This document shows, piece by piece, positions 10,872-41,013 of a stretch of DNA of 41,013 nt. The translations under genes were made by a program, and so were the position numbers. Under the pieces are notes generated by a model. It did not search any database. It saw only the letters and a program-made list of their open reading frames with translations, and was not told where the DNA came from. This DNA is from an uncultured SAR86 cluster bacterium (GTDB taxonomy: Bacteria > Pseudomonadota > Gammaproteobacteria > Magnimaribacterales > Magnimaribacteraceae): NCBI GenBank assembly GCA_902532015.1, contig CACAGI010000012.1:1-41013 (forward strand), in the 5' to 3' direction. Position 1 is the stretch's first letter; each line of letters begins with the position of its first letter.

Positions 10872-10879
10872 ATAGAGAT

Positions 10880-11527
10880 TTACCTAAATCGCTTGAAAGT
10901 ATTAAAAAATAAAGCAATCCCAGAAAGTGAACTTAGCAAAGCCAATACTGAGAAGATCTTCAATAGTATGTTGTTTATATTGTCTCTTTCTCTGTAATCA
11001 ATTATGTGAGCTCCCCAAAGAAAATCCCAAACCCTCCAAGAATCAGATCTAATAGCAACTATTTTCCCTGACATAACATCAACATATACATTGGAATTAT
11101 CTGTTGAGTTAGTTTTGACCTTATAGATGGGTAATTCTCTTCCTCTAAATTCTGACCTTGCTGAGGATTTGTTTATCTTAAATGCATCTATAGGAGAAAG
11201 AGTGGTCTTTGACTTCACAATTTCAATGACCTGATTATTATTTAATGCAATAACTTGATTACCAAATAAATCCTGGTACTTAATTCCACTATCTGTCTCT
11301 ACTTTTACAATCCACTTGTTTAGCCTTTTAAAAATTTCGATATTTTTTGCATTCAAACTAATATTTAAATTTTCTATTTCAATACTGGAAGACTTGTCTG
11401 CAATAATGTACTGCTCACCTCTTACTAGCTCTATTTTATTAAAAGCAAAATAAATTCCAGAGATGGTCCATAACAATAGTTGTATTGAAATGATCAAGCT
11501 TAAATACTTGTGAAATACTCGAACCAT
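10880..11527 (-). CDS. PepSY-domain / PepSY-associated membrane protein
   Basis: The 215-residue protein has a transmembrane helix at each end (about 9-29 and 187-208), with the soluble part between them presumably periplasmic. The N terminus (VFHKYLSLIISIQLLLWTISGIYF) is characteristic of PepSY-associated TM proteins. DVMSGKIVAIRSDSWRVWDFLWGAHIIDYRERDN is split by the family into a PepSY-like strand pair and the W-x-x-D-F-L-W-x-x-H-x-x-D-Y motif before the last helix. Family members often sit beside iron, copper or heme handling genes. Its start lies 8 nt after the stop of the Met/His-rich lipoprotein, so the two form a unit. It converges on the glycosidase with 8 nt between stops. The molecular role is not established. 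Confidence 0.75.
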   Translation of the reverse strand: MVRVFHKYLSLIISIQLLLWTISGIYFAFNKIELVRGEQYIIADKSSSIEIENLNISLNAKNIEIFKRLNKWIVKVETDSGIKYQDLFGNQVIALNNNQVIEIVKSKTTLSPIDAFKINKSSARSEFRGRELPIYKVKTNSTDNSNVYVDVMSGKIVAIRSDSWRVWDFLWGAHIIDYRERDNINNILLKIFSVLALLSSLSGIALFFNTFKRFR

Positions 11528-11535
11528 ATAAACCC

Positions 11536-15897: not shown

Positions 15898-16878
15898 ATG
15901 ACTAGAAAGATAATCATAGATACAGACCCAGCTATGGGAACAAAAGGAGGAGATCCAGAAGATTGCTTTGCTATTATGCTAGCAATGAATTCTCCTGAGT
16001 TAGAAATTTTGGGAATAACAACCGTTCAGGGCAATGTCCCTGTAGAAAGAGGCTACAGTAATGCTAAATACTTAGTTAATGCATTTCAAAAAGATATACC
16101 AGTTCACACCGGTGTTCCTGGAACTTATGATTCAGAAAGGAATGAAAAAAGAAAATGGCTAAGCGAAAGAAAAGAAATGGTTCAACTGACTCCCATGCTA
16201 GAGCCAGCAGCAGAAGATCTATCTGCGCCATCTTTTATAGCTAAAACATGCAGAGAGCAGACTGGAGAAATAGAGCTGGTTACTATTGGACCTCTAACAA
16301 ATGTAGCAAAAGCTTTAGATGAAGATCCTCAATTATCTAAACATATTAAAAAAATTACCTTGATGGCAGGAGCTGCTAAGGTACCCGGAAATGTTACTCC
16401 AGCAGCAGAATTTAACGTGTGGGCTGATCCAGAATCAGCTGCTAAAGTATTTAGTTCTGGAATAGATTGTACTTTGGTTCCACTGGATGTCTGTCATAAA
16501 ACAAGATTTAGCAGAAAACAGCTTGAGTTGATAGGAGAGAACAAACACCCATTCTGTCAGTTTGTAAATGAGTCTGTCGATCCGTGGCTAAAAATTAATC
16601 CCAATCACAACATCATAGATCAAGGGCTTCATCTATACGACTCACTTGCAATGGCTCTGAGTTTTTGTCCTGAACTAGCTGAGTTTAAGAAAGCTTACGT
16701 GACTGTCGAAACTAAAGGAGAATATACAGATGGGGAGACTGTTTGTGAATTTAATGAATCTATTATGGGTCAAGTATTCAAGCCAAAGCCAAATGCAGAA
16801 GTAGCTTTAGATATTGATGTGGAAGGTTTTAATAAACTTTTTGAAGAAAGGGTTCTAAACTTTTTAATTAACCTTTGA
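15898..16878 (+). CDS. Nucleoside hydrolase (IUNH family)
   Basis: Members hydrolyse the N-glycosidic bond of ribonucleosides, giving ribose and base. The 326 residues fit the family. The calcium-binding start is the longer variant: IIIDTDPAMGTKGGDPEDCF gives D8 and D10, then D19 and D22 after a short insertion relative to DTDPGxDD. LMAGAAKVPGNVTPAAEFNVWADPESA (155-181, read in parts) carries the ribose-binding N and E. In place of the usual catalytic LHDP-type block the sequence reads GLHLYDSLAMAL, with Y247 where His is expected and H245 two residues earlier. That changes the leaving-group acid, so base preference is uncertain. Its stop TGA abuts the stop of the acyl-CoA synthetase (TGATCA). 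Ribokinase lies in the facing gene run. Confidence 0.9.
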   Translation: MTRKIIIDTDPAMGTKGGDPEDCFAIMLAMNSPELEILGITTVQGNVPVERGYSNAKYLVNAFQKDIPVHTGVPGTYDSERNEKRKWLSERKEMVQLTPMLEPAAEDLSAPSFIAKTCREQTGEIELVTIGPLTNVAKALDEDPQLSKHIKKITLMAGAAKVPGNVTPAAEFNVWADPESAAKVFSSGIDCTLVPLDVCHKTRFSRKQLELIGENKHPFCQFVNESVDPWLKINPNHNIIDQGLHLYDSLAMALSFCPELAEFKKAYVTVETKGEYTDGETVCEFNESIMGQVFKPKPNAEVALDIDVEGFNKLFEERVLNFLINL

Positions 16879-18417
16879 TCACCAAAACCTCTTTTTCACT
16901 AAATTTCTTTGTATTTTTCCTGTAGGTAGACGTGGTAATTCTTCTTCCCAGAATTCATAAGATTTAGGCTTTTTAAAACCTGATAATTTTTCCTCCGCCA
17001 TTAGTTGCAATTCCTCTAAGACTTCGTCTTTATTTGCACCTTTCTCTAAATTAATAACTGCTTTAATTTCTTCTCCCCATTCCTCATTTGGTACACCTAC
17101 GCAACAAACTTCGGCTACCTTTTCATTCATTAACAAAATATTGTCAATCTCCTGAGGATATATATTAGTTCCTCCAGAAATAATGGTATCTGCGCTTCTG
17201 CCAGTAAGGAAATAGTATCCATCTTCATCGCAATACCCTATATCTCCCATAGTAAAATAGTCTCCCCAATAAGCTCCAGAAGTTTTTTCTTTGGCCTTGT
17301 AATACTCAAATCGTCCTTTTGCAGGTGCACTAAAATAAATAGTACCTTCTTTGCCTTGGTCAACTTTATTAAACTCTTCATCTAGGATTATGACCTCAGT
17401 ACCTTCATTAGCTTGACCTACGCTACCCGGTTTATTTAACCATTCTTGCGGCTCAATAAAGCACCCTCCACCTTCAGTTGCTGCATAATATTCATAAATA
17501 ATTGGACCAACCCAATCTATCATTGCTTTTTTTACTTCCACAGGACACGGAGCTGCCCCATGCAAAATCCACCTCATTGAGGATAAATCATATTTTGATT
17601 TTATTTCTTCAGGTAATCTCAAAACACGATGAAACATTGTTGCCACCATGTGCGTGTGAGTGCATTTATATCTACTAATTAGCTCTAACATTTTTTCGGC
17701 ATCCCACTTATCCATTAGATAGACGCCTACACCTGCCATTAAAGAAATATTGATATTAAGTCCAAGGGGCGCTGCATGATAAGCAGGACCTGGACAAATA
17801 CTAAAATCAGTTTCTGGATTGAAAGCGGCTGTATCCAAAGTTAGTTGTTCTGTTTTGGAAGGAGGCGGATTTTCATGTCTAAACACTCCTTTGGGTCTGC
17901 CGGTTGTGCCTGAGGTATAGAGCATGGATCTACCTGCTATAGGTTCAGCTATATCTGATTCATCATATTCTTTTAGAGTCTCTAAAAACGGAAGTGCCAG
18001 ATGATGCTCACCATCAGCTGACAAGATAATTACCTCAGGTAGCTGTTGATTAATTGCCTCTATAAATTCAGAAAAAATAGCATCGCAAACTACTACTTTA
18101 GCTTCACAGTTTTCTACTATGTAACATATCTCTTCAGGTGTAAGGTGCCAATTTATTGGAGTTATTCTTAAACCAACTCTTAAAGGTCCGAAAAGAGCTT
18201 CTAAGAATTCTGGTCGATTCTTGCAAACTATGGCAACTCCATCGCCCGGCTGTAAACCTTTATCGGACAAAAAGTTAGCATAGCGATTGCTATTTTCATT
18301 AAGCTCTTTAAATGTCCTCTCTCCGTGCTCACTTACAATGGCTTTTTTGTCTGGAATATTTTTAGCATGGAAAGCTATACCCATTCCTACTAAAGCATGC
18401 TCTTGGAAAGTTTGCAT
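16879..18417 (-). CDS. AMP-forming acyl-CoA synthetase / carboxylate-CoA ligase
   Basis: This ANL-superfamily enzyme activates a carboxylic acid with ATP and then forms the CoA thioester. Counted from the preferred ATG (512 residues) it shows the P-loop-like MLYTSGTTGRPKGV at about 165-178, the adenine motif YEYYAATEGGG, the hinge block GDIGYCDEDGYYFLTGR, and the C-terminal catalytic lysine in LPTGKIQRN. A TTG 9 nt upstream (18426) would overlap the PhyH gene by 8 nt. The ATG, which follows the PhyH stop by 1 nt, is more likely. Medium- or branched-chain fatty acids are plausible substrates, given the PhyH neighbour, but the acyl specificity cannot be read. It is the last gene of the 13-gene run. 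Confidence 0.93.
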   Translation of the reverse strand: MQTFQEHALVGMGIAFHAKNIPDKKAIVSEHGERTFKELNENSNRYANFLSDKGLQPGDGVAIVCKNRPEFLEALFGPLRVGLRITPINWHLTPEEICYIVENCEAKVVVCDAIFSEFIEAINQQLPEVIILSADGEHHLALPFLETLKEYDESDIAEPIAGRSMLYTSGTTGRPKGVFRHENPPPSKTEQLTLDTAAFNPETDFSICPGPAYHAAPLGLNINISLMAGVGVYLMDKWDAEKMLELISRYKCTHTHMVATMFHRVLRLPEEIKSKYDLSSMRWILHGAAPCPVEVKKAMIDWVGPIIYEYYAATEGGGCFIEPQEWLNKPGSVGQANEGTEVIILDEEFNKVDQGKEGTIYFSAPAKGRFEYYKAKEKTSGAYWGDYFTMGDIGYCDEDGYYFLTGRSADTIISGGTNIYPQEIDNILLMNEKVAEVCCVGVPNEEWGEEIKAVINLEKGANKDEVLEELQLMAEEKLSGFKKPKSYEFWEEELPRLPTGKIQRNLVKKRFW

Positions 18418-18418
18418 C

Positions 18419-19414
18419 TTAATCAATTAAAGATTTTTGATACTCGTTAAGGACAGGTTTTTTTGGCCACTTATATTTATCTCTATCTTGAGCTTCTACT
18501 ATAAGAGGGAATTCATCTGCGTTTCTAAATCCATTAGTCCAGTTTGTTGTGGAAATAAGCTTATCCACTGCTTCTCTTCTTTTTTCCAATATGTCTTCAC
18601 TTGTTAAGTGCTTAGGCATCATGCATATTAAAGACGCAGCTCTAATTAAACTGTTAGTGCCTTCTTCCAGTTCAGATCCAGAATTGCTGCAATGTATAGT
18701 TCTTGAGTCCCAAAGAAGCATATCTCCAGGTTCCATGTGACACATTACAGCTTTTTCAGAAGTTAATTTAGGATCATCATTAGGAAAACGAAAATGATCT
18801 ACATCCAAAGGCAATCTAGACAGTCTTTCTTCATACTCATTAGGAATATTCTCAAAAAATTTATGTGATCTAGGTATCACAACATTACCACCAATCTTTT
18901 CTGAGGTAGGCAATAAATTTACTAAACCTTGCACACAATGTTTTCCTGGTTTTGAAATTGGATGTTGATCTATATGAAACCAAGATTGACCACTTTCCGT
19001 TTTCCAATCTAGATCAATATTCCAGGGCCTCCATAAAGAAACACCATCGAAACTTGTTAACAATTCTTCTGTATCCCAAATCTTTGCAAAAGCTTTTTTT
19101 ACATTGGGTATCCCTCTCACATACCACTGAGCTTCTGAATGACCGATACCATAACTCGGCATAATTCCGCCATGGGCACAAGTTGGCCACTTATCGTCTA
19201 CCCAGGTTGTAGGATCTTTTCTATCTATGCCTGTACCTAACTCTTCTAAATAGTCCCACAACAAATCAAGTGTTCTTTGGGCTTCTTTTGTAGTTAGAGC
19301 ATTCTTTATTACAACATAGCCATATTCATCTAAATACTTAATACTTTCTTCTGAACCAGAATCTAGTCTAGGTACATGTCTGTATTCTATTTCAATGTTG
19401 AAATCGCTTGTCAT
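18419..19414 (-). CDS. Phytanoyl-CoA dioxygenase (PhyH)-family Fe(II)/2-oxoglutarate oxygenase
   Basis: The 331-residue protein has the PhyH jelly-roll pattern. The metal triad is H147 and D149 in WFHIDQHP, and H241 in RTIHCSN; preceding GDMLLWDSR is typical. IGGNVVIPRSHKFF is the conserved strand that often follows the first ligand pair. PhyH enzymes hydroxylate acyl-CoAs or small molecules such as ectoine or phosphonates using Fe(II), O2 and 2-oxoglutarate. A short hairpin with the GGGGAG ribosome site in its loop lies directly before the ATG. The adjacent CoA ligase suggests an acyl-CoA or acid substrate, but this is not decisive. It follows ribokinase by 21 nt. Confidence 0.9.
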   Translation of the reverse strand: MTSDFNIEIEYRHVPRLDSGSEESIKYLDEYGYVVIKNALTTKEAQRTLDLLWDYLEELGTGIDRKDPTTWVDDKWPTCAHGGIMPSYGIGHSEAQWYVRGIPNVKKAFAKIWDTEELLTSFDGVSLWRPWNIDLDWKTESGQSWFHIDQHPISKPGKHCVQGLVNLLPTSEKIGGNVVIPRSHKFFENIPNEYEERLSRLPLDVDHFRFPNDDPKLTSEKAVMCHMEPGDMLLWDSRTIHCSNSGSELEEGTNSLIRAASLICMMPKHLTSEDILEKRREAVDKLISTTNWTNGFRNADEFPLIVEAQDRDKYKWPKKPVLNEYQKSLID

Positions 19415-19433
19415 TGTCTCCCCTTTTCAGACA
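19415..19433 (-). promoter_or_regulatory. Hairpin carrying the PhyH ribosome-binding site
   Basis: On the minus strand TGTCT and AGACA form a 5-bp stem around GAAAAGGGG, directly before the ATG. The strong Shine-Dalgarno (AAGGGGAG) lies in the loop and the 3' arm, so initiation could be modulated. A 5-bp stem is weak and could be chance. Confidence 0.3.
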
Positions 19434-19435
19434 GG

Positions 19436-20356
19436 TTAAGTAATTTGGTGAAAATTTACAACTTCTTCCATGCTTGGCATAGAAGCAGAAGCTCCTTTCT
19501 TCATCACGGATAAAGCAGCAGCTTTGTTAGCAAAATTAACCGAATCCAATAAATCTTTACTCTCTAAATATTGACTAGCCAAGGCCCCTATAAAACAATC
19601 ACCAGAACCGGTCGTATCCACAGCTTCAACCTTATGGCCTTCAATCAATTGACCTTTTTGATCGTCATGAACATAAGCCCCTTTTGATCCAAGAGTTACC
19701 ACAACACTTTGGGTTGTACTCAGATTTAAATCCTTTATAGCCTGACCTATAGAGTCAGCATTCTGCCTCTCTAGAGTTCGTTCAGTTAAGTTTTCTAATT
19801 CAGGTTCATTCATGACAAGTAAATCGGTTTCGTGAATAAGATTTTTACTTATTTTCAAAGCTGGGGCTGTATTTAATATTCTATAAGTTCCTGTATTCTT
19901 TGCTTTAATGAACAGATCTTCAATCTCTGAAGACGGAACTTCAAGTTGAGATATTAAAACATCACTCGCGCTTAATTCTTTGTCTGATATTTGATTTGAT
20001 TTAACTTGTTCGTTGGAACCAGAAATAACAATAATCTGATTTTCTGAAGTTTCTTCAAAGACATAAATGAAAGCTATCCCTGAAGAACCTTCGTGTCTTC
20101 CAACCATCGAAGTGTCTACGTGTTCGCTATTAAGGCTTTCTAGTAATTCATCTCCAAAAACATCATTTCCGACTTTACCAATCAATGAAACCGGGAAACC
20201 TAATCTTGAAACGGTCACTGCTTGATTAGCGCCCTTACCTCCTTGGAAAGTTTCGAAACTATTTCCTAAAATAGTTTCTCCTTTGGCAGGTTGTTTATCA
20301 CTGTAAACAATCAGATCCATATTAATGCTTCCAAAAACTATTATTGGAGAAGACAT
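19436..20356 (-). CDS. rbsK: Ribokinase (PfkB family)
   Basis: Ribokinase phosphorylates D-ribose to ribose 5-phosphate with ATP. The 306 residues show both PfkB signatures: the N-terminal ETFQGGKGANQAVTVSRLG (GGKGAN at 39-44) and the C-terminal DTTGSGDCFIGALAS with D253 as catalytic base. ILNTAPA and VMNEPELENLT are close to ribokinase's NPAPA and PNE motifs, which favours ribose over fructose, adenosine or pseudouridine. It follows an ADP-ribosylglycohydrolase-family gene by 5 nt in the same direction. A nucleoside hydrolase lies nearby on the other strand, so the set could channel ribose from nucleosides or ADP-ribosyl compounds into the pentose phosphate pool. No ABC ribose importer is present in the window. 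Confidence 0.9.
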   Translation of the reverse strand: MSSPIIVFGSINMDLIVYSDKQPAKGETILGNSFETFQGGKGANQAVTVSRLGFPVSLIGKVGNDVFGDELLESLNSEHVDTSMVGRHEGSSGIAFIYVFEETSENQIIVISGSNEQVKSNQISDKELSASDVLISQLEVPSSEIEDLFIKAKNTGTYRILNTAPALKISKNLIHETDLLVMNEPELENLTERTLERQNADSIGQAIKDLNLSTTQSVVVTLGSKGAYVHDDQKGQLIEGHKVEAVDTTGSGDCFIGALASQYLESKDLLDSVNFANKAAALSVMKKGASASMPSMEEVVNFHQIT

Positions 20357-20361
20357 AGAAT

Positions 20362-21432
20362 TTAGGGTAAATCAGGAGAGCTGGAAAATTTTTCTACTAA
20401 AGCACATGTTCTATCGACCAAATCATCTAGATTTAACTCGCCTACACCTGATACAGCCGTAAGGACTCTTCCTTGCCAAGGTTCTGTCCAAAGCTCAGGT
20501 ATTGAGCCTTGATCTAATCCAATCAAACCACCAACAGTGGCACCGGTACAGTCCGTATCCCAACCACAGCAAATGGTTTCACCGATCGCTTCATCAAATG
20601 AATCCTGAAAAGATAAAAATGCCCAAACTACTACGGATAAATTATTCAAGCTGTGAACGGGTGACATGTCCCCATAATATTCGTGTAAGTTTGAAGCTGG
20701 TTTACCTGCATTATTTATACCTAATAAAACTGCTTCATAAGCTTCAGAATCTTTATCAATCAGATTTAAAGCTGCGTTAACAGCTTCTTCTCTAGAGTTT
20801 GAGTCAGGTATAAGGGCACACAATCCTGCTATATAAGCCGAGGCTTCTACAGCACAACCTCGATGCGAAAGAATCGCATCTCTTCTAGCTAATTCAGCTG
20901 CAAGTTTAGGTTTACCCGGCAAGACCCAGCCATACATGTCTATTCTTATTTGTGCACCAATCCAATCGTTATATTCACCATCATTAATTTCATTAAGATC
21001 AAAGTTTCTTTTACCACCAAACTGATAAGCCATGTCCAATCTCTCTAGTAATTTTAGATATGAATCCCTTTCTGCAGTAAAAGTTGCGCCAACAGGTAAA
21101 AGATTTATCCAAGACCTAGCAACATCATCAGTATCAATCTCAATGCCATGACGCTCCAACATCATTAAAGCAAGTACAAGATAAGTTATGTCATCATCAA
21201 CCTCAGCTTTATCCATCTTTCCTAAACAACACTTTATATTAGGTCCTCTTAACATCTCATGATCCATGTAATTAACATAATTCCTTAAAGGCAAAGAACC
21301 TGAGTCGGAAAGAAATTTATTAAGACCTTCAGGACCTTCTCTCATAGAAATCATTTCTACTGGCTTTCCTAGCAAACAACCTGAGATTCGTCCTTGCCAA
21401 GCAGCTCTTATGATATCAATTTGATTGGACAT
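20362..21432 (-). CDS. ADP-ribosylglycohydrolase (ARH/DraG)-family protein
   Basis: The 356-residue all-alpha protein carries the family's two metal-binding patches: VDDDITYLVLALMMLER with D79-D80-D81, and CCGWDTDCTGATVGGLIG with D292 and D294, which bind two Mg ions. The start (AWQGRISGCLLGKPVEM) is also typical. DraG removes ADP-ribose from proteins, and relatives act on O-acetyl-ADP-ribose, ADP-ribosyl-DNA or small ribosides. No ADP-ribosyltransferase is in the window. The direct linkage to ribokinase (5 nt) and PDF suggests a catabolic use, release of a ribose moiety, rather than signalling. An AGGAG site 8 nt before the ATG supports the start. Confidence 0.88.
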   Translation of the reverse strand: MSNQIDIIRAAWQGRISGCLLGKPVEMISMREGPEGLNKFLSDSGSLPLRNYVNYMDHEMLRGPNIKCCLGKMDKAEVDDDITYLVLALMMLERHGIEIDTDDVARSWINLLPVGATFTAERDSYLKLLERLDMAYQFGGKRNFDLNEINDGEYNDWIGAQIRIDMYGWVLPGKPKLAAELARRDAILSHRGCAVEASAYIAGLCALIPDSNSREEAVNAALNLIDKDSEAYEAVLLGINNAGKPASNLHEYYGDMSPVHSLNNLSVVVWAFLSFQDSFDEAIGETICCGWDTDCTGATVGGLIGLDQGSIPELWTEPWQGRVLTAVSGVGELNLDDLVDRTCALVEKFSSSPDLP

Positions 21433-23025: not shown

Positions 23026-24927
23026 TTACTCCTTATTAGATTTGCTTTTTGAATTACATGATGGGGGAAGGTTGATTGTTGGGTTCTGATCGAAAAAACC
23101 AACCGGTATTAAATGAAACCCGCAATATTCAACCGGCATTACTGGCCAATCTTCAGGCCTCGGTGTATGAGTCAGTCCAAAAGTGTGCCAAGTTACTAAA
23201 TCGCACTCGCTTATGTCTCTATCTGAAGAAGTAATATCATCTAGCCCGCCTTCTCCAGAATGCATTACAGAAAATTCTCCACCTGCGGCCTGTTCATCTT
23301 TATGAAATGGGGTTGCCCATAGATTATGTTTAGAAAAAGAAGCCCTCTTTCCCGGAGGAGAATCTGGATGAGCAATCAAAGCAGGCGTATTTCCGGGTAG
23401 CAGCTTATAACCAACCGGAAGACCAAAAGAATTAGTTTTATTAGCATTAATTACTTTCCAAACTCGACTTGAAGAAGATGAGACATCTCTTTTAGCTTCA
23501 CTTTCTGTTTTCAAATGTTTAGATACGGCACTGAATTGCATTCCATTAGGGTTTTCATCGCTGACTGGAAGAGCTTCAACATTAGACTCATATAATTGAT
23601 TATTACCGCCTTCCAAATCCCAATCTAGCCTTACGCAAAACAAATGTTGATGAATAGGTGAAACTAGCTCATCTGTAATACGGAAATCTTGATCACTTCT
23701 GTGCGTCTTTTCGTCATAAGCACTGATGCCAACAATACCGGTTAATTTAACTTCGCATTGGATAGTTCCATCAAGATACAGATACCAAAACAATCCATAA
23801 TCATAATTACCTATGGTTGCTATCGAACTGATAACTAACCTTCTTGAGCGCCTAACTTCATTTGCTCCAAGCATATTCATATCATTATGTTTCCATTGAA
23901 TTCCATAATCTTCCTCATGAATACATATAGCGCTTTCAATAGTATTCACAGAACCATCAAACATGAGCATATTTGCATCTAAGTAATGGATCTCACCTAA
24001 ACAATCGCATCCTAAAGTCAAAGAATTAACTAAAGTTCCAAAACCGTATTCTGTGCCATCATGTACAGCCTTCCAACTATGCATTGGATCTGCAGTTCCA
24101 TAAGGAACTACCATATCTGAAAGGGCCACTCTATGAAGAATTGCTCTACCATCTAAAGACAATTGATGAAGTACTGGGCCTTCATCAGGATTAACTGAAA
24201 CTCTAACCTGCCACCCTTCCCAACTAATAAGATTTCCTTCTATATCAAATCCTGGTCCGTCGGGTTGTGTAATGTCTATCTTCTTAGGTTGTTCTCTGAG
24301 TTCTGGTTGCGAGTCTGCATCGTACCTAGCGTGCGCTTTAGGCATTTCAACCACACCATGATCTTCTATATGAGTAACTTGCTGTAGGGTCAAATCTACA
24401 TGGGAAATTACTCCGGTTATTGGTTTGGCATAAGCATTATCTGTCTGATTTTCTCTTAAAAAAGATATGGTCTTAAGTGCTCTGTGTCCTGGCTTAATAC
24501 TCTCATGAATAACACCACCTGCTGGCCAAGGATCTATTTGAACCATGTCCAAATCAGTTATGCCTCTTTTCTTTAGAGCTTCCTGATATCGCTGATCTGC
24601 CTTAGTTAGCTCCGTAGCCATAAACACTTCAGCCAAGCTGTAAGTAACTTGAGCTTTCTCGGAAACTCTATTAAGACTATTAACCTCATTAGATTTCAAA
24701 TCGATAATAGCTACAAAACCACCATCTTCTTTAGAGTCAATTCCTCTAATTTTTAACATCCTAGGGCAGTCATCACCTTGCTTATAGTTCCTAACAAATT
24801 CCTTCTCGGGTTCAACCAAACTAATATTTATGAACAAAGCATTCTCATCAAATCCATCGAATGATCGACATAGGTCAACTGCGATATTTATTTCGTCTGC
24901 ACTTATTAGCTCTAATGGGTGTTTCAT
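23026..24927 (-). CDS. Copper-containing (TPQ) primary amine oxidase, apparently cytoplasmic
   Basis: This enzyme oxidises primary amines to aldehydes, releasing ammonia and hydrogen peroxide. The self-processed cofactor site is T-I-G-N374-Y375-D-Y377 in SIATIGNYDYGLFW, where Y375 becomes topaquinone. D290 in VHDGTEYGFG is the likely catalytic base. Copper ligands are H426 and H428 in SPIHQHLF plus a third His, probably H587 in GLTHTPRPEDWPVMP. Length (633 residues) is that of Arthrobacter-type oxidases without the extra N-terminal domain. No signal peptide is seen at MKHPLELISADE, unlike the periplasmic E. coli TynA. A GGAG site 6 nt before the ATG supports the start. Tyramine, phenylethylamine or another aromatic amine are plausible substrates. 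Confidence 0.95.
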   Translation of the reverse strand: MKHPLELISADEINIAVDLCRSFDGFDENALFINISLVEPEKEFVRNYKQGDDCPRMLKIRGIDSKEDGGFVAIIDLKSNEVNSLNRVSEKAQVTYSLAEVFMATELTKADQRYQEALKKRGITDLDMVQIDPWPAGGVIHESIKPGHRALKTISFLRENQTDNAYAKPITGVISHVDLTLQQVTHIEDHGVVEMPKAHARYDADSQPELREQPKKIDITQPDGPGFDIEGNLISWEGWQVRVSVNPDEGPVLHQLSLDGRAILHRVALSDMVVPYGTADPMHSWKAVHDGTEYGFGTLVNSLTLGCDCLGEIHYLDANMLMFDGSVNTIESAICIHEEDYGIQWKHNDMNMLGANEVRRSRRLVISSIATIGNYDYGLFWYLYLDGTIQCEVKLTGIVGISAYDEKTHRSDQDFRITDELVSPIHQHLFCVRLDWDLEGGNNQLYESNVEALPVSDENPNGMQFSAVSKHLKTESEAKRDVSSSSSRVWKVINANKTNSFGLPVGYKLLPGNTPALIAHPDSPPGKRASFSKHNLWATPFHKDEQAAGGEFSVMHSGEGGLDDITSSDRDISECDLVTWHTFGLTHTPRPEDWPVMPVEYCGFHLIPVGFFDQNPTINLPPSCNSKSKSNKE

Positions 24928-26582: not shown

Positions 26583-27581
26583 TTAATTAAGTAATTTTAA
26601 ATCTTTGGCTTGATGTATAGAAGCTTTAATTAAAATAGGAATGAAAGCTTCATAACCGGCTTCCGGTCTATCTTCAATCCAACGAATAATCATCATGGTG
26701 CGCATTAATAAAAACATTGGAATGGTGTTAATTATATCTTGCGAGTTTGGGCACTCTTCCAAGTATCCTGTTATCAGCGCCTCGTAAGCTATATCAAAAT
26801 GGCAGCCCGTAGCTGTGAAATCCAGTCTATCCCAAACAGCAACCGCTAAATCAAACCCATACCAACCAAAGCCAGCGTCATCAAAATCAATAACAGAAAG
26901 TTTATCCTTTTGAATCAATACATTTTGCGAATGCATATCAGCATGAATCATGCCAAAAGAGCTTATATCCTTTGAAAGTTTAGATAAGCTATTTTCTATA
27001 TTCTTTCTTATCAAAGATAACTTTTCTCGTTCTTCATCAGAGGCATTCTTTGCTTCCCAAAACCTTCCCCAAAAGGGTTCACTGCCTACAAATCCATCGA
27101 CATCAAAAGAATGTCTTTTAAAATCTTTGGGTACCTCCCAATTCACAGTTGCTTGGTGAAACTTTGCAATAACCTTGCCTAAAGAGTTATACAAGTCGCT
27201 AACTTCCTTTTCTTTAAGTTCTACAATGAGGTCATTTAATATTACGCCTTCCATCCACTTGACTAATCCTACGTACCTAAATTCATCTGAGTCATTGAAG
27301 AAAACGGTTGCGTAAGCTTCTCCATTAGCAGTTGGTACTGCTTCTGGGACAGATAAGCCTGCTTTTGATAAACACGAAGTCCAGTTATGCTCTGAATTTA
27401 ATTCGTCTAGATCATGATATCCCTTTCTATGAACTCTTAAAGCGTATTCATTCCCATCTTTATCCTCCACTTTGAATACTGTGTTTTCGCTTTGAAGATG
27501 AAGATTGATGCTTTGAACGTCTAAGTCCCATTCTTTTAATGACTTTTGTGCTAGTTCAGTAAGAGCATTTTCATCGATCAT
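26583..27581 (-). CDS. APH-family small-molecule kinase (choline/homoserine/hydroxylysine kinase-like)
   Basis: The 332-residue protein has the aminoglycoside-phosphotransferase fold used by kinases of choline, homoserine and hydroxylysine. Brenner's motif is visible as MIHADMHSQNVLI, with catalytic D215 and N220. The metal-binding VIDFDDAG motif (D232, D234) follows, then WYGFDLAVAVWD. The ATP-binding Lys position falls in YALRVHRKG. It is followed 4 nt later by a phospho-lyase-type class III enzyme transcribed in the same direction upstream. In animals hydroxylysine kinase (AGPHD1) and 5-phosphohydroxylysine phospho-lyase (AGXT2L2) form such a pair, so an amino-alcohol substrate is a reasonable inference. 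Antibiotic resistance is not implied. Confidence 0.88.
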   Translation of the reverse strand: MIDENALTELAQKSLKEWDLDVQSINLHLQSENTVFKVEDKDGNEYALRVHRKGYHDLDELNSEHNWTSCLSKAGLSVPEAVPTANGEAYATVFFNDSDEFRYVGLVKWMEGVILNDLIVELKEKEVSDLYNSLGKVIAKFHQATVNWEVPKDFKRHSFDVDGFVGSEPFWGRFWEAKNASDEEREKLSLIRKNIENSLSKLSKDISSFGMIHADMHSQNVLIQKDKLSVIDFDDAGFGWYGFDLAVAVWDRLDFTATGCHFDIAYEALITGYLEECPNSQDIINTIPMFLLMRTMMIIRWIEDRPEAGYEAFIPILIKASIHQAKDLKLLN

Positions 27582-27585
27582 AATT

Positions 27586-28854
27586 TTAGGTATGAAATTC
27601 GTCTAAAGTTTCCTCGAGAATTTCACAAAGTGAGTCGGCATGTTCTTTTTGAAACACCAAAGGAGGTCTAATTTTCAAAACATTTCTAAATTGCCCTGCG
27701 TTCGAAATCAAAAACCCTTTCTGTTTCATCTTTTCCACAAATTTAATTGCTAACTCTTTATTAGGTTCACTGCTCCCGTCACCTTGAATGCATTCAATAG
27801 CTATAAACAGACCCAGTCCCCTGACGTCTCCGACCATGTGATATTTATCAGCAAAGCCTTGTACTTTATCTTTTAAATAATTGCCAACGGAATGAACGTT
27901 TCCAAGTAAATCTTCTCCCTCAATCACATCAAGAACAGCATTTCCCACCGCTGCCTGTAATGGTGTAGACGCCGTGGTATTGAAGTAATAACTCTTTTCA
28001 TGAAAAATCTTGGCTATTTCAGGACTTGTCCCTACTCCGCTGAGTGGATAACCTGACCCCATTGGCTTTCCCATTGCTACTATATCGGGAACACACTCAT
28101 TAACTTCGTAACCCCACCAGCTGCCTGTTCTACAAAATCCTGCCTGAACTTCATCAAGGATAATCACTCCTCCAGCATCTCTAATCAATTTTGCAGCTTT
28201 AGATAAAAATCCTTCTGGTATGTCTGGAAGACCTTCATTAGCAAATATAGAGCAAAACAACATACCTGCTAATGGGATATTGGCCTCTTGGAATTCACTA
28301 ATAGCTCTTTTAATTTCTTCAAGATATAAATTGCAAAGCTCACTCTCTGATAAACCTTCTTTTATAGGTCTAAACTTCTCTGGAAAAGGAACGCGTATGA
28401 AGTCAGGTTCGAAGGGTCCTATTGTCATTCGAATTGTTTCATGACTATTCCCGTGGTAAGTAGCATTACTACAGATAATGCCTTGCCCCTCAGTCGCAAG
28501 TCTTGCCATCTTAATGGCTACTTCTATGGCTTCAGTTCCACTGCATCCCATTTGTAACACCGAGAGCGGATCAGCATGCAAAGACATTAGTCTTTCTGAA
28601 TAATCAATAACCACTTTACTCAGATAACGACTATGGGTATTTAATTGGCTAGCTTGGTTGCTTAAAGCTTCGATTACTTGAGGATGGCAATGGCCAACGC
28701 AAGGAACGTTGTTATAACAATCCATATATTTATTATTGGAATCGTCATACAACCAGATTCCTTCTCCTTTTACCAGGTGGACAGGGTCTTTATAAAATAG
28801 AGGAGACGAACCCATTGAGAGCGTTCGTCGCTCCAATAATTCCTTATCAGTCAT
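27586..28854 (-). CDS. Class III PLP enzyme of the AGXT2L (amino-alcohol phosphate phospho-lyase) type
   Basis: The 422-residue PLP enzyme is close in wording to AGXT2L1/2, the ethanolamine-phosphate and 5-phosphohydroxylysine phospho-lyases: NVPCVGHCHPQVIEAL, LNTHSRYLSK (71-80), and AMGKPMGSGYPLSGV with PLP lysine K263 recall VGHCHP, LNTNSR and MGKPMGNGHP of those enzymes. D234 and E235 in ILDEVQAGFCRTG complete the site. Such enzymes cleave a phosphorylated amino alcohol to an aldehyde, ammonia and phosphate, rather than transaminating. It is 4 nt from the APH-family kinase and directly follows alkaline phosphatase. A normal aminotransferase remains possible. The comparison is from memory, not an alignment. 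Confidence 0.87.
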   Translation of the reverse strand: MTDKELLERRTLSMGSSPLFYKDPVHLVKGEGIWLYDDSNNKYMDCYNNVPCVGHCHPQVIEALSNQASQLNTHSRYLSKVVIDYSERLMSLHADPLSVLQMGCSGTEAIEVAIKMARLATEGQGIICSNATYHGNSHETIRMTIGPFEPDFIRVPFPEKFRPIKEGLSESELCNLYLEEIKRAISEFQEANIPLAGMLFCSIFANEGLPDIPEGFLSKAAKLIRDAGGVIILDEVQAGFCRTGSWWGYEVNECVPDIVAMGKPMGSGYPLSGVGTSPEIAKIFHEKSYYFNTTASTPLQAAVGNAVLDVIEGEDLLGNVHSVGNYLKDKVQGFADKYHMVGDVRGLGLFIAIECIQGDGSSEPNKELAIKFVEKMKQKGFLISNAGQFRNVLKIRPPLVFQKEHADSLCEILEETLDEFHT

Positions 28855-28871: not shown

Positions 28872-30200
28872 CTAATCTCCTATACAGGAGCCAGTCTCAT
28901 AACTTAAATCCAAAGCAGCTACCATCGCCCTATAAACATCCGTGTTATCCATAGTTCCTGTAAAGTTTTCTGAACCAGGCCCATATGCATAGACAGGAAC
29001 TGGGACACCGGTATGAGATCCATATCCTATGCCAGTATTGTATGAAAATTTAACTTCAGGAGCTGTGTATGCAGTAGGTTTTAACGGTTCTATTAGCAAC
29101 CCGCCTGTTTCATGATCGGCAGTAACGATAACCAAAGTTTCATTGTTTTGTTCAGCATAACTTTTCGCCAGTACCACTGCTTCTTCAAAGTCTTCCATTT
29201 CCCTTACAAGATAGTCAATACTGTTGGCATGTCCCGCCCAATCCACTTGAGAACCTTCTACCATAATAAAGGATCCTCTACACCCGTTTTGCATTAAAGA
29301 CTCTGATCTTTTGATAGCAAAATCTAACATATCCTTAGTTGCTGGTTCAGATGAATGGTTATCTGGTTTCTCTATATCTCTTAAATGTTCATCTGCAAAT
29401 AGACCAATTACTTTTTTTGTTGTATTTAAATCAACATCAACTAACTCATCTTTATGGGTAAGTAAAATGTGCGAGGTTTCAACTTGTTCGTATAGATTTA
29501 AACCATCATCTCTTTTTCCACCCATCTCTTCCGGTAAAAAGAAATGCCTACCTCCTCCCAAAATTGTAATAACATTTGAATCCATCATCTGTTTACTTAT
29601 TTCATCTGTTTTCCATCTTAGATCTACATGTGCAGCAAAAGCTGCAGGAGTGGCGTGAGTTATTTCGGAAGTTGATATTAATGAACTGACGTAACCATAC
29701 TGATCAATTTTCTCAGTAAGGTTTTCTAGATAATTCAAGTCTTTATCCAAACCAAGAGCTCCGTTATTGGTCTTATATCCAGTGCTGTAAGCTGTAGCAG
29801 AAGAGGCGGAGTCAGTCACTATGGCATCTACTGAATGCGTGAGAACAATTCCAGAAATAGGAAATTTATCAACCGCTAACCTTTCATTAGGTCCTCCTTT
29901 AATCAACCTATATGAAGAAACCTGACTGATACTCATTCCATCGGCAATTAACAAAATAATATTCTTGGCCTTCTTGTTAACAGAAACAAGTTGCTTTGGT
30001 TCAAGCGTTTTACCTTCAGGTAGATTTTTAATAAAGGCATCTTTGTCAGCAATAGAACCTTCAGGTATTGGAATATTAGCCAGTAAAGCTGCCATACCTA
30101 AAGATTCTAATATTTTGTAACCTGTGTAAGCACCAAGACTAAAGACTAGAGCTATAACAAAAATATTTTTCTTAAGATAACTGAAGATTTGACGCATCAT
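28872..30200 (-). CDS. Alkaline phosphatase (PhoA family), exported
   Basis: This 442-residue PhoA-type phosphatase has a membrane/signal helix at the start (KNIFVIALVFSLGAYTGY). The phosphate-binding core reads NIILLIADGMS (D87), VTDSASSATAYSTG with the nucleophilic serine S131, VDWAGHANS, and VTADHETGG. These are metal ligands of the two-zinc/one-magnesium site. It would release phosphate from phosphomonoesters in the periplasm. It is the second gene of the run, 17 nt before the phospho-lyase gene, and follows an SGNH gene. No Pho box is evident upstream. The co-location suggests a supply of free alcohols or amino alcohols from phosphate esters, but that is inference. Confidence 0.95.
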   Translation of the reverse strand: MMRQIFSYLKKNIFVIALVFSLGAYTGYKILESLGMAALLANIPIPEGSIADKDAFIKNLPEGKTLEPKQLVSVNKKAKNIILLIADGMSISQVSSYRLIKGGPNERLAVDKFPISGIVLTHSVDAIVTDSASSATAYSTGYKTNNGALGLDKDLNYLENLTEKIDQYGYVSSLISTSEITHATPAAFAAHVDLRWKTDEISKQMMDSNVITILGGGRHFFLPEEMGGKRDDGLNLYEQVETSHILLTHKDELVDVDLNTTKKVIGLFADEHLRDIEKPDNHSSEPATKDMLDFAIKRSESLMQNGCRGSFIMVEGSQVDWAGHANSIDYLVREMEDFEEAVVLAKSYAEQNNETLVIVTADHETGGLLIEPLKPTAYTAPEVKFSYNTGIGYGSHTGVPVPVYAYGPGSENFTGTMDNTDVYRAMVAALDLSYETGSCIGD

Positions 30201-32958: not shown

Positions 32959-32976
32959 AGTATGCCAAGGCTCGAT

Positions 32977-34221
32977 ATGAAAAAATTTCCTTTTGTTACC
33001 ATGGTTTTGTTTATTTCTTACAATTCCATTTTCGCAGATGGAAAAATAGAGAGTTACAAGTCTGGCTTAGATAGAACTATGTCTTTCCCAGATACCGAAG
33101 AATACTTAACTATTTCTACAGATTTACATACTCATTCTGTATTCTCAGATGGTCATGTATGGCCCAATATAAGAGTAGCTGAGGCACAAAAAGATAATAT
33201 AGATGTTCTAGCAATTACTGAGCATTTAGAGTATCAACCTCATATCATGCATATACCTCATGAAAATAGAAATGCTGCATATATAGAAGCTAAAAGAGCT
33301 GCTTCTGGCACTGATTTGATTGTTATAAATGGTTCTGAAATTACTAGAGAAATGCCTCCGGGACATATAAATGCAATTTTTGTTAAGGATGCCAACAAAC
33401 TTTATAAATTTGATCAAAATTTTCTTCCAGAAGCTAAAGAGCTTATAGAAGAGCGAGCTCAAGGAGCAGAGTTGCCTGAAGAACAAATGCAAGTTCTAGA
33501 GAACTATGCTTTAGGTAATTTGTATCCTGCATTAGAAGCTTTAAAGGAGGCTAAGAACCAAGAAGCTTTTGTATTTTGGAATCATCCAATGTGGGGCTCT
33601 CAAGCATCAGATGGAATTGCAAGATTAGATGATATGCATAGAGAATTTATAACAAAAGATTTGTTACATGGTATCGAGATAGTAAATACAGGAACCTATT
33701 CAGAAGAGGCATTTAACATTGCATTAGAAAATAACTTAGCATTAATTGGCACCTCAGATGTTCATGATTTAATAGAGTGGGATTACGATGCACATAATAA
33801 TGAGCATAGGCCTATTACCTTAGTGTTTGCTAAAGAACGAAACGAGGCATCCATAAAAGAAGCTTTATTTGATAGAAGGACAGTAGTTGTATTTAAAGAT
33901 AGATTTATGGGAAGAAGCCAATACATACTGCCATTATTAAAATCAATTATTAGTATTTCTTCAAATGGATATAGAGAAGGGACGCAAATACTAAAGATAG
34001 AAATTCGAAATAATTCTTCGACATATATGATTTTAGAAAACTTATCTGAATTTAATTTTGCTGATAGCGATGACTTAATTTCCATTCCTAAAAATGGAAA
34101 AGTTACCCTTCAAGTTAAGACTTTAGAAGTTTTAAATAATATAGACTTAAAATTTAAATTCTTGAATGCACTAACTTCACCAAAAGAGCATCCTGTTGTA
34201 AGTTTTAGAGTAAGTACTTAA
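32977..34221 (+). CDS. Secreted PHP-domain (CehA/McbA-type) metallohydrolase
   Basis: This PHP-fold protein has a signal peptide when read from the internal ATG (MKKFPFVTMVLFISYNSIFA). An AAGG site 6 nt before that ATG supports it over the ATG at 32962. Metal ligands, counted from here, are H51 and H53 (DLHTHS), D58, E82 and H83 (AITEHLEY), then WNHPMWGS and GTSDVHD later. PHP enzymes hydrolyse phosphoesters or related bonds with two or three metal ions, and CehA/McbA members act on carbamates or phosphoesters. A beta-rich C-terminal part of about 100 residues follows. It overlaps the convergent TauD gene by 4 nt. Substrate unknown. Confidence 0.88.
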   Translation: MKKFPFVTMVLFISYNSIFADGKIESYKSGLDRTMSFPDTEEYLTISTDLHTHSVFSDGHVWPNIRVAEAQKDNIDVLAITEHLEYQPHIMHIPHENRNAAYIEAKRAASGTDLIVINGSEITREMPPGHINAIFVKDANKLYKFDQNFLPEAKELIEERAQGAELPEEQMQVLENYALGNLYPALEALKEAKNQEAFVFWNHPMWGSQASDGIARLDDMHREFITKDLLHGIEIVNTGTYSEEAFNIALENNLALIGTSDVHDLIEWDYDAHNNEHRPITLVFAKERNEASIKEALFDRRTVVVFKDRFMGRSQYILPLLKSIISISSNGYREGTQILKIEIRNNSSTYMILENLSEFNFADSDDLISIPKNGKVTLQVKTLEVLNNIDLKFKFLNALTSPKEHPVVSFRVST

Positions 34222-35087
34222 GTTAAATTCTTTTCTTTCAGGTGATTGATTAATTGTTTGTCGTGCGTTGTAACAGCTGAAAAACCCTCTCGCAAAGCAG
34301 GTTCCCATCTAGGGTTGGAAGAAGACTCTACCTTGTCTCCCATTATGGTTACCCTCTGGATTACCCTTTCACCTTCAAAATCATTTACAACGTAATGTTG
34401 AGTGGAACGATTATCCCACATAGCAATAGTACCTTCTGACCAATGATATCTGATTGTAAATTGTGGTTTTTGAACCCATTTAGTTAAATAAGCTAGGAGC
34501 ATATCACTTTCGTCTTTACTCATTTCTACAATTCTTCTTGTGAAATGTTCATTAACATACAGAACTTTCTTACCCGTCTCAGGATGCACTCTTACAACAG
34601 GATGTATAGCCGTTTTATCAGGCCTGCCATGAGGTCTTGCATCATGTAATGCAGTAAGGCCTTCACAAAGATCTTTTAAAGGATCTGAAAGAGCTTCGTA
34701 TGCAGCTGATAAATTACTCCACATTGTATCGCCACCCAAGTCTGGACATTTAACCATGTGAAGAACTGACATTAAAGCAGGAGAATCTTGAAAAGTTATA
34801 TCAGTATGCCACTCATCTGCTATTCCCCCCTCGGAAGCAGTTAATTCAAAAACCTTTGGGTGCACATTATTCTTTTTTAAATTGGGGTGTCCTTCTAGCT
34901 CACCAAATTTTGAACCAAACTCAACATGCTCATCAATGGTAATCTTTTGATTTGGAAAAAATAGAACCATGTTTTCGTTTAGATGCTTCTTAATCTCCTT
35001 AACCTGCAAATCAGAAACTTGACTTAAATCAACATCACTAATTTCTGCACCTAAGGCAGTTGAAAGACGGGAAAACTTTAAACTCAT
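34218..35087 (-). CDS. TauD/TfdA-family Fe(II)/2-oxoglutarate dioxygenase
   Basis: The 289-residue enzyme belongs to the taurine dioxygenase group. The facial triad is H94 and D96 in DEWHTDITF and H231 in STQHYVVNDF, with R241 or R245 near the end binding 2-oxoglutarate. Conserved neighbours are NMVLFFPNQ, GEL-EGHP, CPDLGGDTMWSN and AIHPVVRVHPETG. Such enzymes release sulfite from sulfonates or cleave alkyl sulfates and herbicide ethers. The nearby sulfatase makes an organosulfur substrate attractive, but carnitine-type or other substrates are not excluded. It is the last gene of the minus-strand region H and overlaps the PHP gene at its 3' end. Confidence 0.92.
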   Translation of the reverse strand: MSLKFSRLSTALGAEISDVDLSQVSDLQVKEIKKHLNENMVLFFPNQKITIDEHVEFGSKFGELEGHPNLKKNNVHPKVFELTASEGGIADEWHTDITFQDSPALMSVLHMVKCPDLGGDTMWSNLSAAYEALSDPLKDLCEGLTALHDARPHGRPDKTAIHPVVRVHPETGKKVLYVNEHFTRRIVEMSKDESDMLLAYLTKWVQKPQFTIRYHWSEGTIAMWDNRSTQHYVVNDFEGERVIQRVTIMGDKVESSSNPRWEPALREGFSAVTTHDKQLINHLKEKNLT

Positions 35088-39961: not shown

Positions 39962-41013
39962 TTATTCGATTACTTGAATCCTTCCTTCATGCTTCGGTTC
40001 ATATGACTTTCTCTCCTTTAGAAAATTTTCAACTTCGTCAATTATCAAAACGCCGCTATCAATATATTCTATTGAATTCAGAAATTCTAAGTACCCATCT
40101 CCACCTCGAGCAACAATATCTGGAGCTGCTACCCAGTAATCTTGATCATCATTTATCAATTCACCTTTGATCCAGATATCAAGAACTTTGTTTCTTGGGC
40201 TAAAAGAATATTTTGCATTTTTTGATACCTGTAATACTCCATTTGTCATGCCAGCAGCATGATCAAAGATTAGTTTTACTTGGGACCCTTTAAGTTTTGT
40301 CATCACTATAGTATTTGGGAAAGGAAAAGCAGAAATTAAATCCCCTTTTGAGATAGACCCTGCATCAATATCTTGCCTAAGACCGCCACTATTCATAACA
40401 GCTATATCTATTCTTTCATCAAAAGCCGCAATGGCATCTGTAAATAAATTACCCATACTCGATTCCTTGCCATATGCTCTAACTAGTTTTTTTGTTAAGG
40501 AGGCTATAGGAACTGAAGCTATTTTTTCTACCTCTTGCTGCCAATAAGTAATTTCCCTGAGCATATCAGTATCATCTTCTACTTCATCATCATAAATTGT
40601 TATCAATTGATTTGAATGCGAAACTATTCTTTTCTTATCTGTATCGTATTTTATTTGTAGCTTTCCAAGCTCTGTTGAAGTCGCATTAGTTGAAACAATA
40701 ATTGTTCCATTAGAAACTAGAGCCTTGTCTGTTCCCTGATGGGCATGTCCAGTTACAATAATATCTACCCCAGGAACATTCTGAGCAAGAAGAATGTCTT
40801 TATAAAGATTCCTTTCGACATCAGTTAATCCAATGGTAGATTGCCTGGCTGGCATTCCTTGATGAACACTAAGTATTATGAGATCTGTAATAGGTTCTAA
40901 TTCCTCGATGTATTGTCTTAAATACTTTTCTTCATCCCTGGCTTCAATACCTTCTGTCATTTTTAAATTGATGGTGTCATAGAAAGCAAATTTTCCATGA
41001 AGCCCAATTATTC
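39962..41013 (-). CDS. 5'-nucleotidase family (UshA-type) metallophosphoesterase, 3' part
   Basis: The gene's 5' end lies beyond the window: the frame stays open past the ATG at 40960 to the edge, adding residues such as IIGLHGKFAFYDT. The visible 349 residues hold the end of the metallophosphoesterase domain (SVHQGMP and VTGHAHQG, with metal ligands) and the substrate-binding domain, marked by GNLFTDAIAAF, NSGGLRQDIDAGSISKGDL and VARGGDGYLEF. UshA-type enzymes hydrolyse 5'-nucleotides and UDP-sugars, usually in the periplasm. With a nucleoside hydrolase and ribokinase elsewhere in the window, nucleotides could be taken down to ribose 5-phosphate. Whether a signal peptide exists cannot be seen. 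Confidence 0.9.
   Translation of the reverse strand, partial: IIGLHGKFAFYDTINLKMTEGIEARDEEKYLRQYIEELEPITDLIILSVHQGMPARQSTIGLTDVERNLYKDILLAQNVPGVDIIVTGHAHQGTDKALVSNGTIIVSTNATSTELGKLQIKYDTDKKRIVSHSNQLITIYDDEVEDDTDMLREITYWQQEVEKIASVPIASLTKKLVRAYGKESSMGNLFTDAIAAFDERIDIAVMNSGGLRQDIDAGSISKGDLISAFPFPNTIVMTKLKGSQVKLIFDHAAGMTNGVLQVSKNAKYSFSPRNKVLDIWIKGELINDDQDYWVAAPDIVARGGDGYLEFLNSIEYIDSGVLIIDEVENFLKERKSYEPKHEGRIQVIE

What the first reader, a model, noticed from the sequence alone, without database searches (positions are those of the whole stretch)
26583..28854. APH-family kinase beside an AGXT2L-type phospho-lyase
The 4-nt-spaced pair mirrors the animal hydroxylysine kinase / phosphohydroxylysine phospho-lyase and ethanolamine-phosphate phospho-lyase logic. 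It would convert an amino alcohol to an aldehyde with release of ammonia and phosphate, giving carbon, nitrogen and phosphate together. The alkaline phosphatase gene lies 17 nt upstream.
Basis: partly seen in the sequence, partly recalled or inferred. Interest (0 to 1): 0.66.

Follow-up and report, generated by a model that had tools for sequence, protein, structure and literature searches.

The report
Amino-alcohol kinase and phospho-lyase gene pair
This uncultured marine SAR86 bacterium carries two neighbouring genes that very probably split a small amino alcohol into an aldehyde and ammonia by first attaching a phosphate; the same two-step scheme is already known in other bacteria and in animals, and what is new here is mainly a distinct branch of it with an altered active-site loop and a still unknown substrate.

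Summary
In detail: on the minus strand an alkaline phosphatase (28872-30200), a class III PLP protein (27586-28854) and an APH-type kinase (26583-27581) follow each other with gaps of 17 and 4 nt. The PLP protein belongs to the AGXT2L/A1RDF1 phospho-lyase clade (100/100 against GABA, ornithine and acetylornithine aminotransferases and PbfA). It has Lys394 where aminotransferases keep Arg398 (89/89 lyases have Lys). The kinase's nearest solved relative, by sequence and by fold, is the (S)-1-amino-2-propanol kinase 6ef6; all 23 family-invariant residues are shared. The kinases paired with the window's lyase subclade form a matching clade (99/93); 71 of 80 named lyase loci have such a kinase within 3 kb or fused; one SAR86 relative lacks exactly these two genes in an otherwise syntenic locus. 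So the mechanism (phosphorylate, then eliminate ammonia and phosphate) is well supported. Substrate is open; a short beta-amino alcohol is favoured. Three corrections: the closest parallel is bacterial, not animal; the released phosphate comes from ATP, so there is no phosphate gain; the alkaline phosphatase is not tied to the pair. A copper amine oxidase is present in every pair-bearing genome searched. New member of a known kind, in a distinct subclade.

The parts
26583..27581 (-). APH-family kinase, aminopropanol-kinase-like; predicted amino-alcohol O-kinase
   Evidence: Pfam APH 4.6e-27; best PDB sequence and fold hit 6ef6; 23/23 family-invariant residues shared with 6ef6; AF2 pLDDT 95.2
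27586..28854 (-). Class III PLP enzyme of the AGXT2L/A1RDF1 phospho-lyase clade; predicted amino-alcohol-phosphate ammonia/phosphate lyase
   Evidence: Tree 100/100; Lys394 for GabT Arg398, NNV and FNT motifs; best PDB 5g4i then 6tor by sequence and fold; AF2 pLDDT 92.3
27949..27990 (-). Diverged active-site loop YYFNTTASTPLQAA (residues 289-302 of the PLP protein); most other lyases read FNTFGGNPVS here
   Evidence: Residue tallies over 90 lyases
28039..28074 (-). Catalytic-lysine motif MGKPMGSGYPLS (residues 261-272, Lys263); His269 of A1RDF1 and ETNPPL is Tyr here
23026..24927 (-). Copper-containing primary amine oxidase (NYD motif of the TPQ site present), linked to the pair in SAR86
   Evidence: NCBIfam PRK11504 742 bits, above cut-off 651; beside the pair in SAR86 loci; present in all pair-bearing genomes searched
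28872..30200 (-). Alkaline phosphatase with an N-terminal hydrophobic segment; loosely associated neighbour, replaced by another phosphoesterase family in genus g2
   Evidence: Pfam Alk_phosphatase 1.8e-79; replaced in L036-L038 and L150
24956..26329 (-). Glutamate-1-semialdehyde-aminomutase-like class III protein lying between kinase and amine oxidase; genus g1 only, not part of the core pair
   Evidence: hemL-type 331 bits, below cut-off 527; absent from L033, L034, L036-L039
30214..31026 (-). DUF4886 protein, first gene of the minus-strand run
   Evidence: conserved position in relatives

Best explanation
The two genes encode consecutive enzymes of an amino-alcohol catabolic pathway. The kinase transfers the gamma-phosphate of ATP to the hydroxyl of a small beta-amino alcohol (1-amino-2-propanol, ethanolamine or a close analogue). 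The lyase binds the primary amine as a PLP external aldimine through Lys263 and eliminates the neighbouring phosphate; the enamine hydrolyses to an aldehyde and ammonia. Net: amino alcohol + ATP + H2O -> aldehyde + NH3 + ADP + Pi, a deamination that needs neither an amino acceptor nor B12. Shown here by sequence: family, clade, intact active sites, pairing, co-evolution. Inferred: the reactions. Not resolved: the substrate.
For: Lyase clade separated from GabT, ArgD, ornithine AT and PbfA at 100/100; it contains both solved phospho-lyases, A1RDF1 (5g4i) and ETNPPL (6tor). GabT Arg398, which holds the co-substrate carboxylate in transamination (established knowledge), is Lys in 89/89 lyases where the column is present, and GabT Glu211 is Asn206. 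Best sequence and fold hits are 5g4i, then 6tor, with a gap to aminotransferases. Kinase nearest to 6ef6, titled 'microcompartment-associated aminopropanol kinase', by phmmer, profile (318 bits) and fold; 23/23 invariant residues shared. Kinase within 3 kb or fused in 71/80 named lyase loci. Kinases paired with the window's lyase subclade form one clade, 99/93. Both genes missing together in syntenic locus L150. An aldehyde dehydrogenase follows the pair directly in Woeseiaceae locus L062.
Against: No activity is known to me to have been measured for any member of this subclade. The loop beside the active-site threonine is changed (FNTFGGNPVS to FNTTASTPLQ) and His269 is Tyr, so the substrate may not be one of the known ones. 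In the kinase tree 6ef6 sits in a different clade from the window's kinase. No aldehyde dehydrogenase is adjacent in SAR86. Two subclade members (L055, L059) have no kinase nearby.
Confidence: 0.82

Rival explanations
1. Substrate version A: (S)-1-amino-2-propanol, giving propionaldehyde, as for the kinase of the mycobacterial RMM microcompartment and its reported non-microcompartment paralogue.
For: Nearest solved kinase is the aminopropanol kinase, all 23 family-invariant residues shared. L074 in Mycolicibacterium groups lyase, kinase, permease and short-chain dehydrogenase, like the RMM gene set without a shell (PMC4207490).
Against: 6ef6 lies in a different kinase clade; no aminopropanol-dehydrogenase-type SDR next to the SAR86 pair; lyase loop diverged.
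Confidence: 0.28
2. Substrate version B: ethanolamine (or phosphoethanolamine directly), giving acetaldehyde.
For: Both solved lyases of the clade are phosphoethanolamine lyases by title or established knowledge. Some relatives sit with sarcosine-oxidase, GcvT or MttB demethylation genes (L070, L055, L061), which would fit N-methylated ethanolamines.
Against: His269 and the GGNPVS/AGNPVS loop of both phosphoethanolamine lyases are not kept in the SAR86 subclade; the demethylation neighbours are in single distant loci.
Confidence: 0.3
3. Substrate version C: a larger hydroxylated amine, for example a beta-hydroxylated version of a substrate of the neighbouring amine oxidase (octopamine or phenylethanolamine type), so that both enzymes feed the same aldehyde.
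For: Copper amine oxidase 5-99 nt after the kinase, or after a GNAT gene, in several SAR86 loci and present in all pair-bearing genomes searched. In Woeseiaceae L062 an amine dehydrogenase (heavy and light chains) and an aldehyde dehydrogenase follow the pair. Diverged lyase loop.
Against: No homogentisate dioxygenase or phenylacetyl-CoA oxygenase in 37 SAR86-order genomes. Amine-oxidase link seen in only two lineages; L062's lyase has the ordinary loop.
Confidence: 0.15
4. Hydroxylysine route as in animals: 5-hydroxylysine kinase plus phosphohydroxylysine lyase.
For: Same reaction logic and protein families (established knowledge of HYKK and AGXT2L2/PHYKPL).
Against: Closest relatives are bacterial amino-alcohol enzymes; nothing in the locus concerns lysine or collagen; no hydroxylysine-enzyme sequence was available here for a direct test.
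Confidence: 0.07
5. The PLP protein is an ordinary omega-aminotransferase and the kinase an unrelated small-molecule or antibiotic kinase; adjacency is incidental.
For: Family-level annotation (Aminotran_3, APH) allows it.
Against: Tree position, loss of Arg398 and Glu211, coupling in 71/80 loci, matching clades, joint absence.
Confidence: 0.03

Closest known systems
(S)-1-amino-2-propanol kinase of Mycolicibacterium smegmatis (PDB 6ef6; Mallette and Kimber 2018, J Biol Chem 293:19909, cited in PMC8007038) with its associated candidate phospho-lyases
   Same: Same APH subfamily, all 23 invariant residues shared; same kinase-then-lyase logic. From memory of the abstract, the authors noted that such kinases are widespread and commonly sit beside a candidate phospho-lyase
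   Different: About 27% identity and a different kinase clade; no microcompartment here; in a Mycolicibacterium RMM locus (L161) the class III partner is only about 23% identical to the window protein and lacks the NNV and Lys394 signatures
PLP-dependent phospho-lyase A1RDF1 of Arthrobacter aurescens TC1 (PDB 5g4i, 5g4j)
   Same: Same clade, 40-41% identity, TM-score 0.94, NNV, GKPMG, FNT and LK.RPPL signatures
   Different: Loop GNPVS versus STPLQ and His versus Tyr269; a different subclade
Human ethanolamine-phosphate phospho-lyase ETNPPL/AGXT2L1 (PDB 6tor)
   Same: Same clade and reaction signatures, 35-38% identity
   Different: A more distant branch whose nearest sampled relative is an archaeal fused kinase-lyase protein (L118)
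Fused kinase-aminotransferase proteins (NCBIfam PRK06148, PRK06149)
   Same: Kinase and lyase homologues joined in one chain
   Different: The window has two separate genes in lyase-kinase order and scores far below the full-length cut-offs
(R)-1-hydroxy-2-aminoethylphosphonate ammonia-lyase PbfA (PMC8154272)
   Same: Class III PLP enzyme that catalyses a 1,2-elimination
   Different: Separate branch, 193 against a cut-off of 525 bits; releases water rather than phosphate at first; no kinase

Membership tests
AGXT2L/A1RDF1 phospho-lyase clade | Groups with solved phospho-lyases and away from GABA, ornithine and acetylornithine aminotransferases | tested here: met
   100/100 support;
AGXT2L/A1RDF1 phospho-lyase clade | Loss of the aminotransferase carboxylate-binding arginine (GabT Arg398) | tested here: met
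   Lys394; Lys in 89/89 lyases, Arg in GabT, ArgD and ornithine AT
AGXT2L/A1RDF1 phospho-lyase clade | Catalytic Lys and PLP-binding Asp intact; clade motifs NNV and FNT | tested here: met
   Lys263, Asp234, Asn48-Asn49-Val50, Phe291-Asn292-Thr293
AGXT2L/A1RDF1 phospho-lyase clade | Active-site loop FNT[FY][GA]GNP[VA] and GNGHP typical of most of the clade | tested here: not met
   FNTTASTPLQ and GSGYP; loop divergence shared by the 18-row subclade, threonine at 294 by the SAR86 and Myxococcales rows. Not universal in the clade, so a subgroup mark rather than a defining feature
AGXT2L/A1RDF1 phospho-lyase clade | Releases phosphate and ammonia from an O-phospho-amino alcohol | not testable with these tools
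   Needs an enzyme assay
Aminopropanol-kinase-like APH subfamily | Closest to 6ef6 among solved structures, family-invariant residues kept | tested here: met
   phmmer 2e-34, profile 318 bits, fold E 2e-18; 23/23 residues
Aminopropanol-kinase-like APH subfamily | Same clade as 6ef6 within the subfamily (would support the same substrate) | tested here: not met
   Window kinase in a 17-row clade, 6ef6 in another
Aminopropanol-kinase-like APH subfamily | Phosphorylates (S)-1-amino-2-propanol | not testable with these tools
   Needs an enzyme assay
Animal-type hydroxylysine kinase (HYKK) | Sequence clade with HYKK and hydroxylysine activity | not tested
Fused PRK06148/PRK06149 | Kinase and lyase in one chain, above NCBIfam cut-off | tested here: not met
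   389 vs 1128 and 332 vs 973 bits; separate ORFs
RMM aminoacetone microcompartment | Shell proteins and RMM-type gene set beside the kinase | tested here: inconclusive
   No shell-protein gene recognised by eye among the window ORFs of 100 aa or more, but shell proteins can be shorter and no shell profile was searched; the RMM class III partner is a different lineage

The most novel reading that the evidence does not exclude
The SAR86-type lyase and kinase form a functionally distinct subfamily, marked by the PLQ loop, that acts on an amino alcohol not handled by any characterised phospho-lyase, working together with a quinone-cofactor amine oxidase so that an amine and its hydroxylated form are both funnelled to the same aldehyde in an abundant, uncultured marine lineage.
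Probability: 0.25. Interest if true: 0.6.

Novelty: new member of a known kind. Interest (0 to 1): 0.36.

Why it matters
SAR86 is a common, uncultured group of surface-ocean bacteria whose nitrogen and carbon sources are poorly known. A conserved kinase-lyase pair beside an amine oxidase points to small amines and amino alcohols as nutrients and gives an assayable prediction. The PLQ subclade is a test case for how substrate choice shifts within phospho-lyases. For annotation, these genes, mostly labelled aspartate or class III aminotransferase in the plasmid records seen here, can be told apart from aminotransferases by Lys instead of Arg at GabT position 398 together with the NNV motif.

Tried and rejected
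Phosphate-starvation control: Pho-box-like matches are no more frequent than in shuffled sequence (3 against 3.5 expected) and none lies at the run's start. Aromatic route: no homogentisate dioxygenase or PaaA/PaaC homologue in 37 SAR86-order genomes. Alkaline phosphatase as a pathway enzyme: replaced by another phosphoesterase in g2, and that one persists without the pair. The nearby 2-oxoglutarate dioxygenase (34218-35087) was considered because TauD-family genes follow the kinase in L060 and probably L067, but in the window it lies more than 6 kb away; left as a lead. The GSAM-like class III gene next door is genus-limited and was rejected as core. Primary papers on A1RDF1, hydroxylysine kinase and aminopropanol kinase are not held in the library, so statements on them rest on PDB titles, citing papers, or my own knowledge where marked.

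Full report
WHAT IS THERE. On the minus strand the window carries, in transcription order, DUF4886 (31026-30214), alkaline phosphatase (30200-28872), a class III PLP protein (28854-27586) and an APH-type kinase (27581-26583); the gaps are 13, 17 and 4 nt. After 253 nt come a glutamate-1-semialdehyde-aminomutase-like class III gene (26329-24956) and a copper amine oxidase (24927-23026). Pfam and NCBIfam agree on the families. The closest identifiable genome records are SAR86-cluster MAGs, among them a 7704-base contig (L054) whose length and sequence match relative G018's locus.

THE PLP PROTEIN IS A PHOSPHO-LYASE BY DESCENT. The best solved relatives are the Arthrobacter phospho-lyase A1RDF1 (319 bits) and human ETNPPL (279), with the next entries, racemases, at 173. 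The AlphaFold model (pLDDT 92.3) gives the same order by fold: E 1e-44 and 7e-39, then 1e-33 for racemases and GABA transaminases. In a tree with E. coli GabT and ArgD, ornithine aminotransferases over the TIGR01885 cut-off and PbfA over the NF049939 cut-off, all AGXT2L-type proteins form one side at 100/100 (quick tree with PatA and further class III proteins). Residues agree: GabT Arg398 is Lys394, as in all 89 lyases where the column is present, against Arg in GabT, ArgD and ornithine aminotransferase; GabT Glu211 is Asn206; the N-N-V and F-N-T motifs are clade-specific; catalytic Lys263 and Asp234 are kept. The meaning of Arg398 and Glu211 in transamination is established knowledge, not tested here.

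THE KINASE IS OF THE AMINOPROPANOL-KINASE SUBFAMILY. 6ef6, titled 'microcompartment-associated aminopropanol kinase', is the best hit by sequence (2e-34), by profile (318 bits, next 141) and by fold (E 2e-18). The enzyme is the (S)-1-amino-2-propanol kinase of M. smegmatis (reference in PMC8007038; that 6ef6 is this enzyme is inferred from the matching title). All 23 residues invariant over 21 diverse paired kinases are also present in 6ef6. Within the subfamily, however, 6ef6 and the window's kinase fall in different clades, so the same substrate is not implied.

THE TWO WORK TOGETHER. Among 80 named lyase loci, 71 have a homologous kinase within 3 kb or fused in the same chain (six fused); in 68 of them it is fused or directly adjacent. 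The window lyase lies in an 18-row subclade (100/100) comprising SAR86, a Myxococcales MAG and MAGs of Gammaproteobacteria and Acidimicrobiia. The kinases adjacent to these lyases form one clade too, 17 rows at 99/93, as expected of co-evolving partners. In SAR86 the two genes occur in the same genomes of family f1 apart from contig breaks. In relative G012 the locus is syntenic but both genes, and only these, are missing between the amine oxidase and the upstream phosphoesterase gene.

WHAT IS DIFFERENT HERE. The subclade changes a loop next to the active-site threonine: most lyases read FNTFGGNPVS, the subclade reads FNT-x-[AGS]-[AS]-[ST]-P-[LV]-Q, with threonine at position 294 in SAR86 and the Myxococcales row; His269 becomes Tyr, Leu, Met, Ile or Val. 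This suggests, but does not show, a different substrate pocket.

NEIGHBOURS. The copper amine oxidase is in all ten pair-bearing genomes of a 37-genome set and in seven others; for at least two of those seven (G013, G016) the contig ends at the point where the pair would be. It follows the kinase, or a GNAT gene after the kinase, at 5-99 nt in several loci. A Woeseiaceae locus independently has an aldehyde dehydrogenase and both methylamine-dehydrogenase-type chains after the pair. The alkaline phosphatase is less steady: it is replaced by an endonuclease/exonuclease/phosphatase-family protein in genus g2, with or without the pair.

MECHANISM AND ENERGY. The kinase phosphorylates the hydroxyl; the lyase forms an aldimine with the primary amine and eliminates phosphate; the enamine product hydrolyses to an aldehyde and ammonia. 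Family, clade, active-site integrity and coupling are shown by sequence; the reactions are inferred; the substrate is open. Phylogenetic bracketing (A1RDF1 and ETNPPL on the lyase side, aminopropanol kinase on the kinase side) favours a short beta-amino alcohol, about 0.6 in sum for aminopropanol or ethanolamine.

KNOWN OR NEW. The two-enzyme amino-alcohol route is known. From memory: enzyme activities in Erwinia and Pseudomonas in the 1970s, the animal hydroxylysine and phosphoethanolamine enzymes (Veiga-da-Cunha 2012), and the aminopropanol kinase paper of 2018. Fused forms are in NCBIfam. [quoted passage not shown] So this is a new member of a known kind in an undescribed subclade (undescribed as far as I could find); interest is moderate and rests on the substrate.

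Noticed in passing
L054 and L038 (SAR86 G018): lyase L038 2090-3349, kinase L038 1089-2084: Mosaic locus: the lyase is of the g2 type (61% to the window) while the kinase groups with the window's genus (75%), suggesting recombination at the boundary between the two genes.
   Followed up: partly
L150 (G012) 8500-12232: Natural locus without the pair: amine oxidase directly followed by the phosphoesterase-family gene and DUF4886, in otherwise syntenic order.
   Followed up: yes
L161 1934-3214 (Mycolicibacterium RMM locus): The class III partner of the 6ef6-type kinase in the microcompartment locus is about 23% identical to AGXT2L-type lyases, lacks NNV and has Gln at the Arg398 position: the same kinase family seems coupled to two distant class III lineages.
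   Followed up: partly
L062 2306-9740: Woeseiaceae cluster: SDR, lyase, kinase, aldehyde dehydrogenase, methylamine-dehydrogenase-type heavy and light chains.
   Followed up: partly
L070 676-7266; L055 1969-12919; L061 1-5155: Lyases near sarcosine-oxidase alpha, GcvT, corrinoid protein or MttB genes, hinting at N-methylated substrates in some lineages.
   Followed up: no
L060 8309-9184, L067 4987-6174, window 34218-35087: TauD-family dioxygenase gene right after the kinase in L060 and probably L067; a TauD gene also lies in the window 6.6 kb from the pair.
   Followed up: no
L040 (G070 contig C31): Contig from a genome of another SAR86-order family with a lyase fragment and amine oxidase 100% and kinase 98% identical to the window; probably a binning error.
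   Followed up: no
window 15898-21432 and 39962-40960: Nucleoside hydrolase, ribokinase-like, ADP-ribosylglycohydrolase and 5'-nucleotidase genes nearby, a possible nucleoside or ADP-ribose salvage set.
   Followed up: no
window 32962-34221: PHP-like protein with a C-terminal DUF5001 domain, beside an alpha/beta hydrolase and an enoyl-CoA hydratase, conserved next to the pair in SAR86.
   Followed up: no
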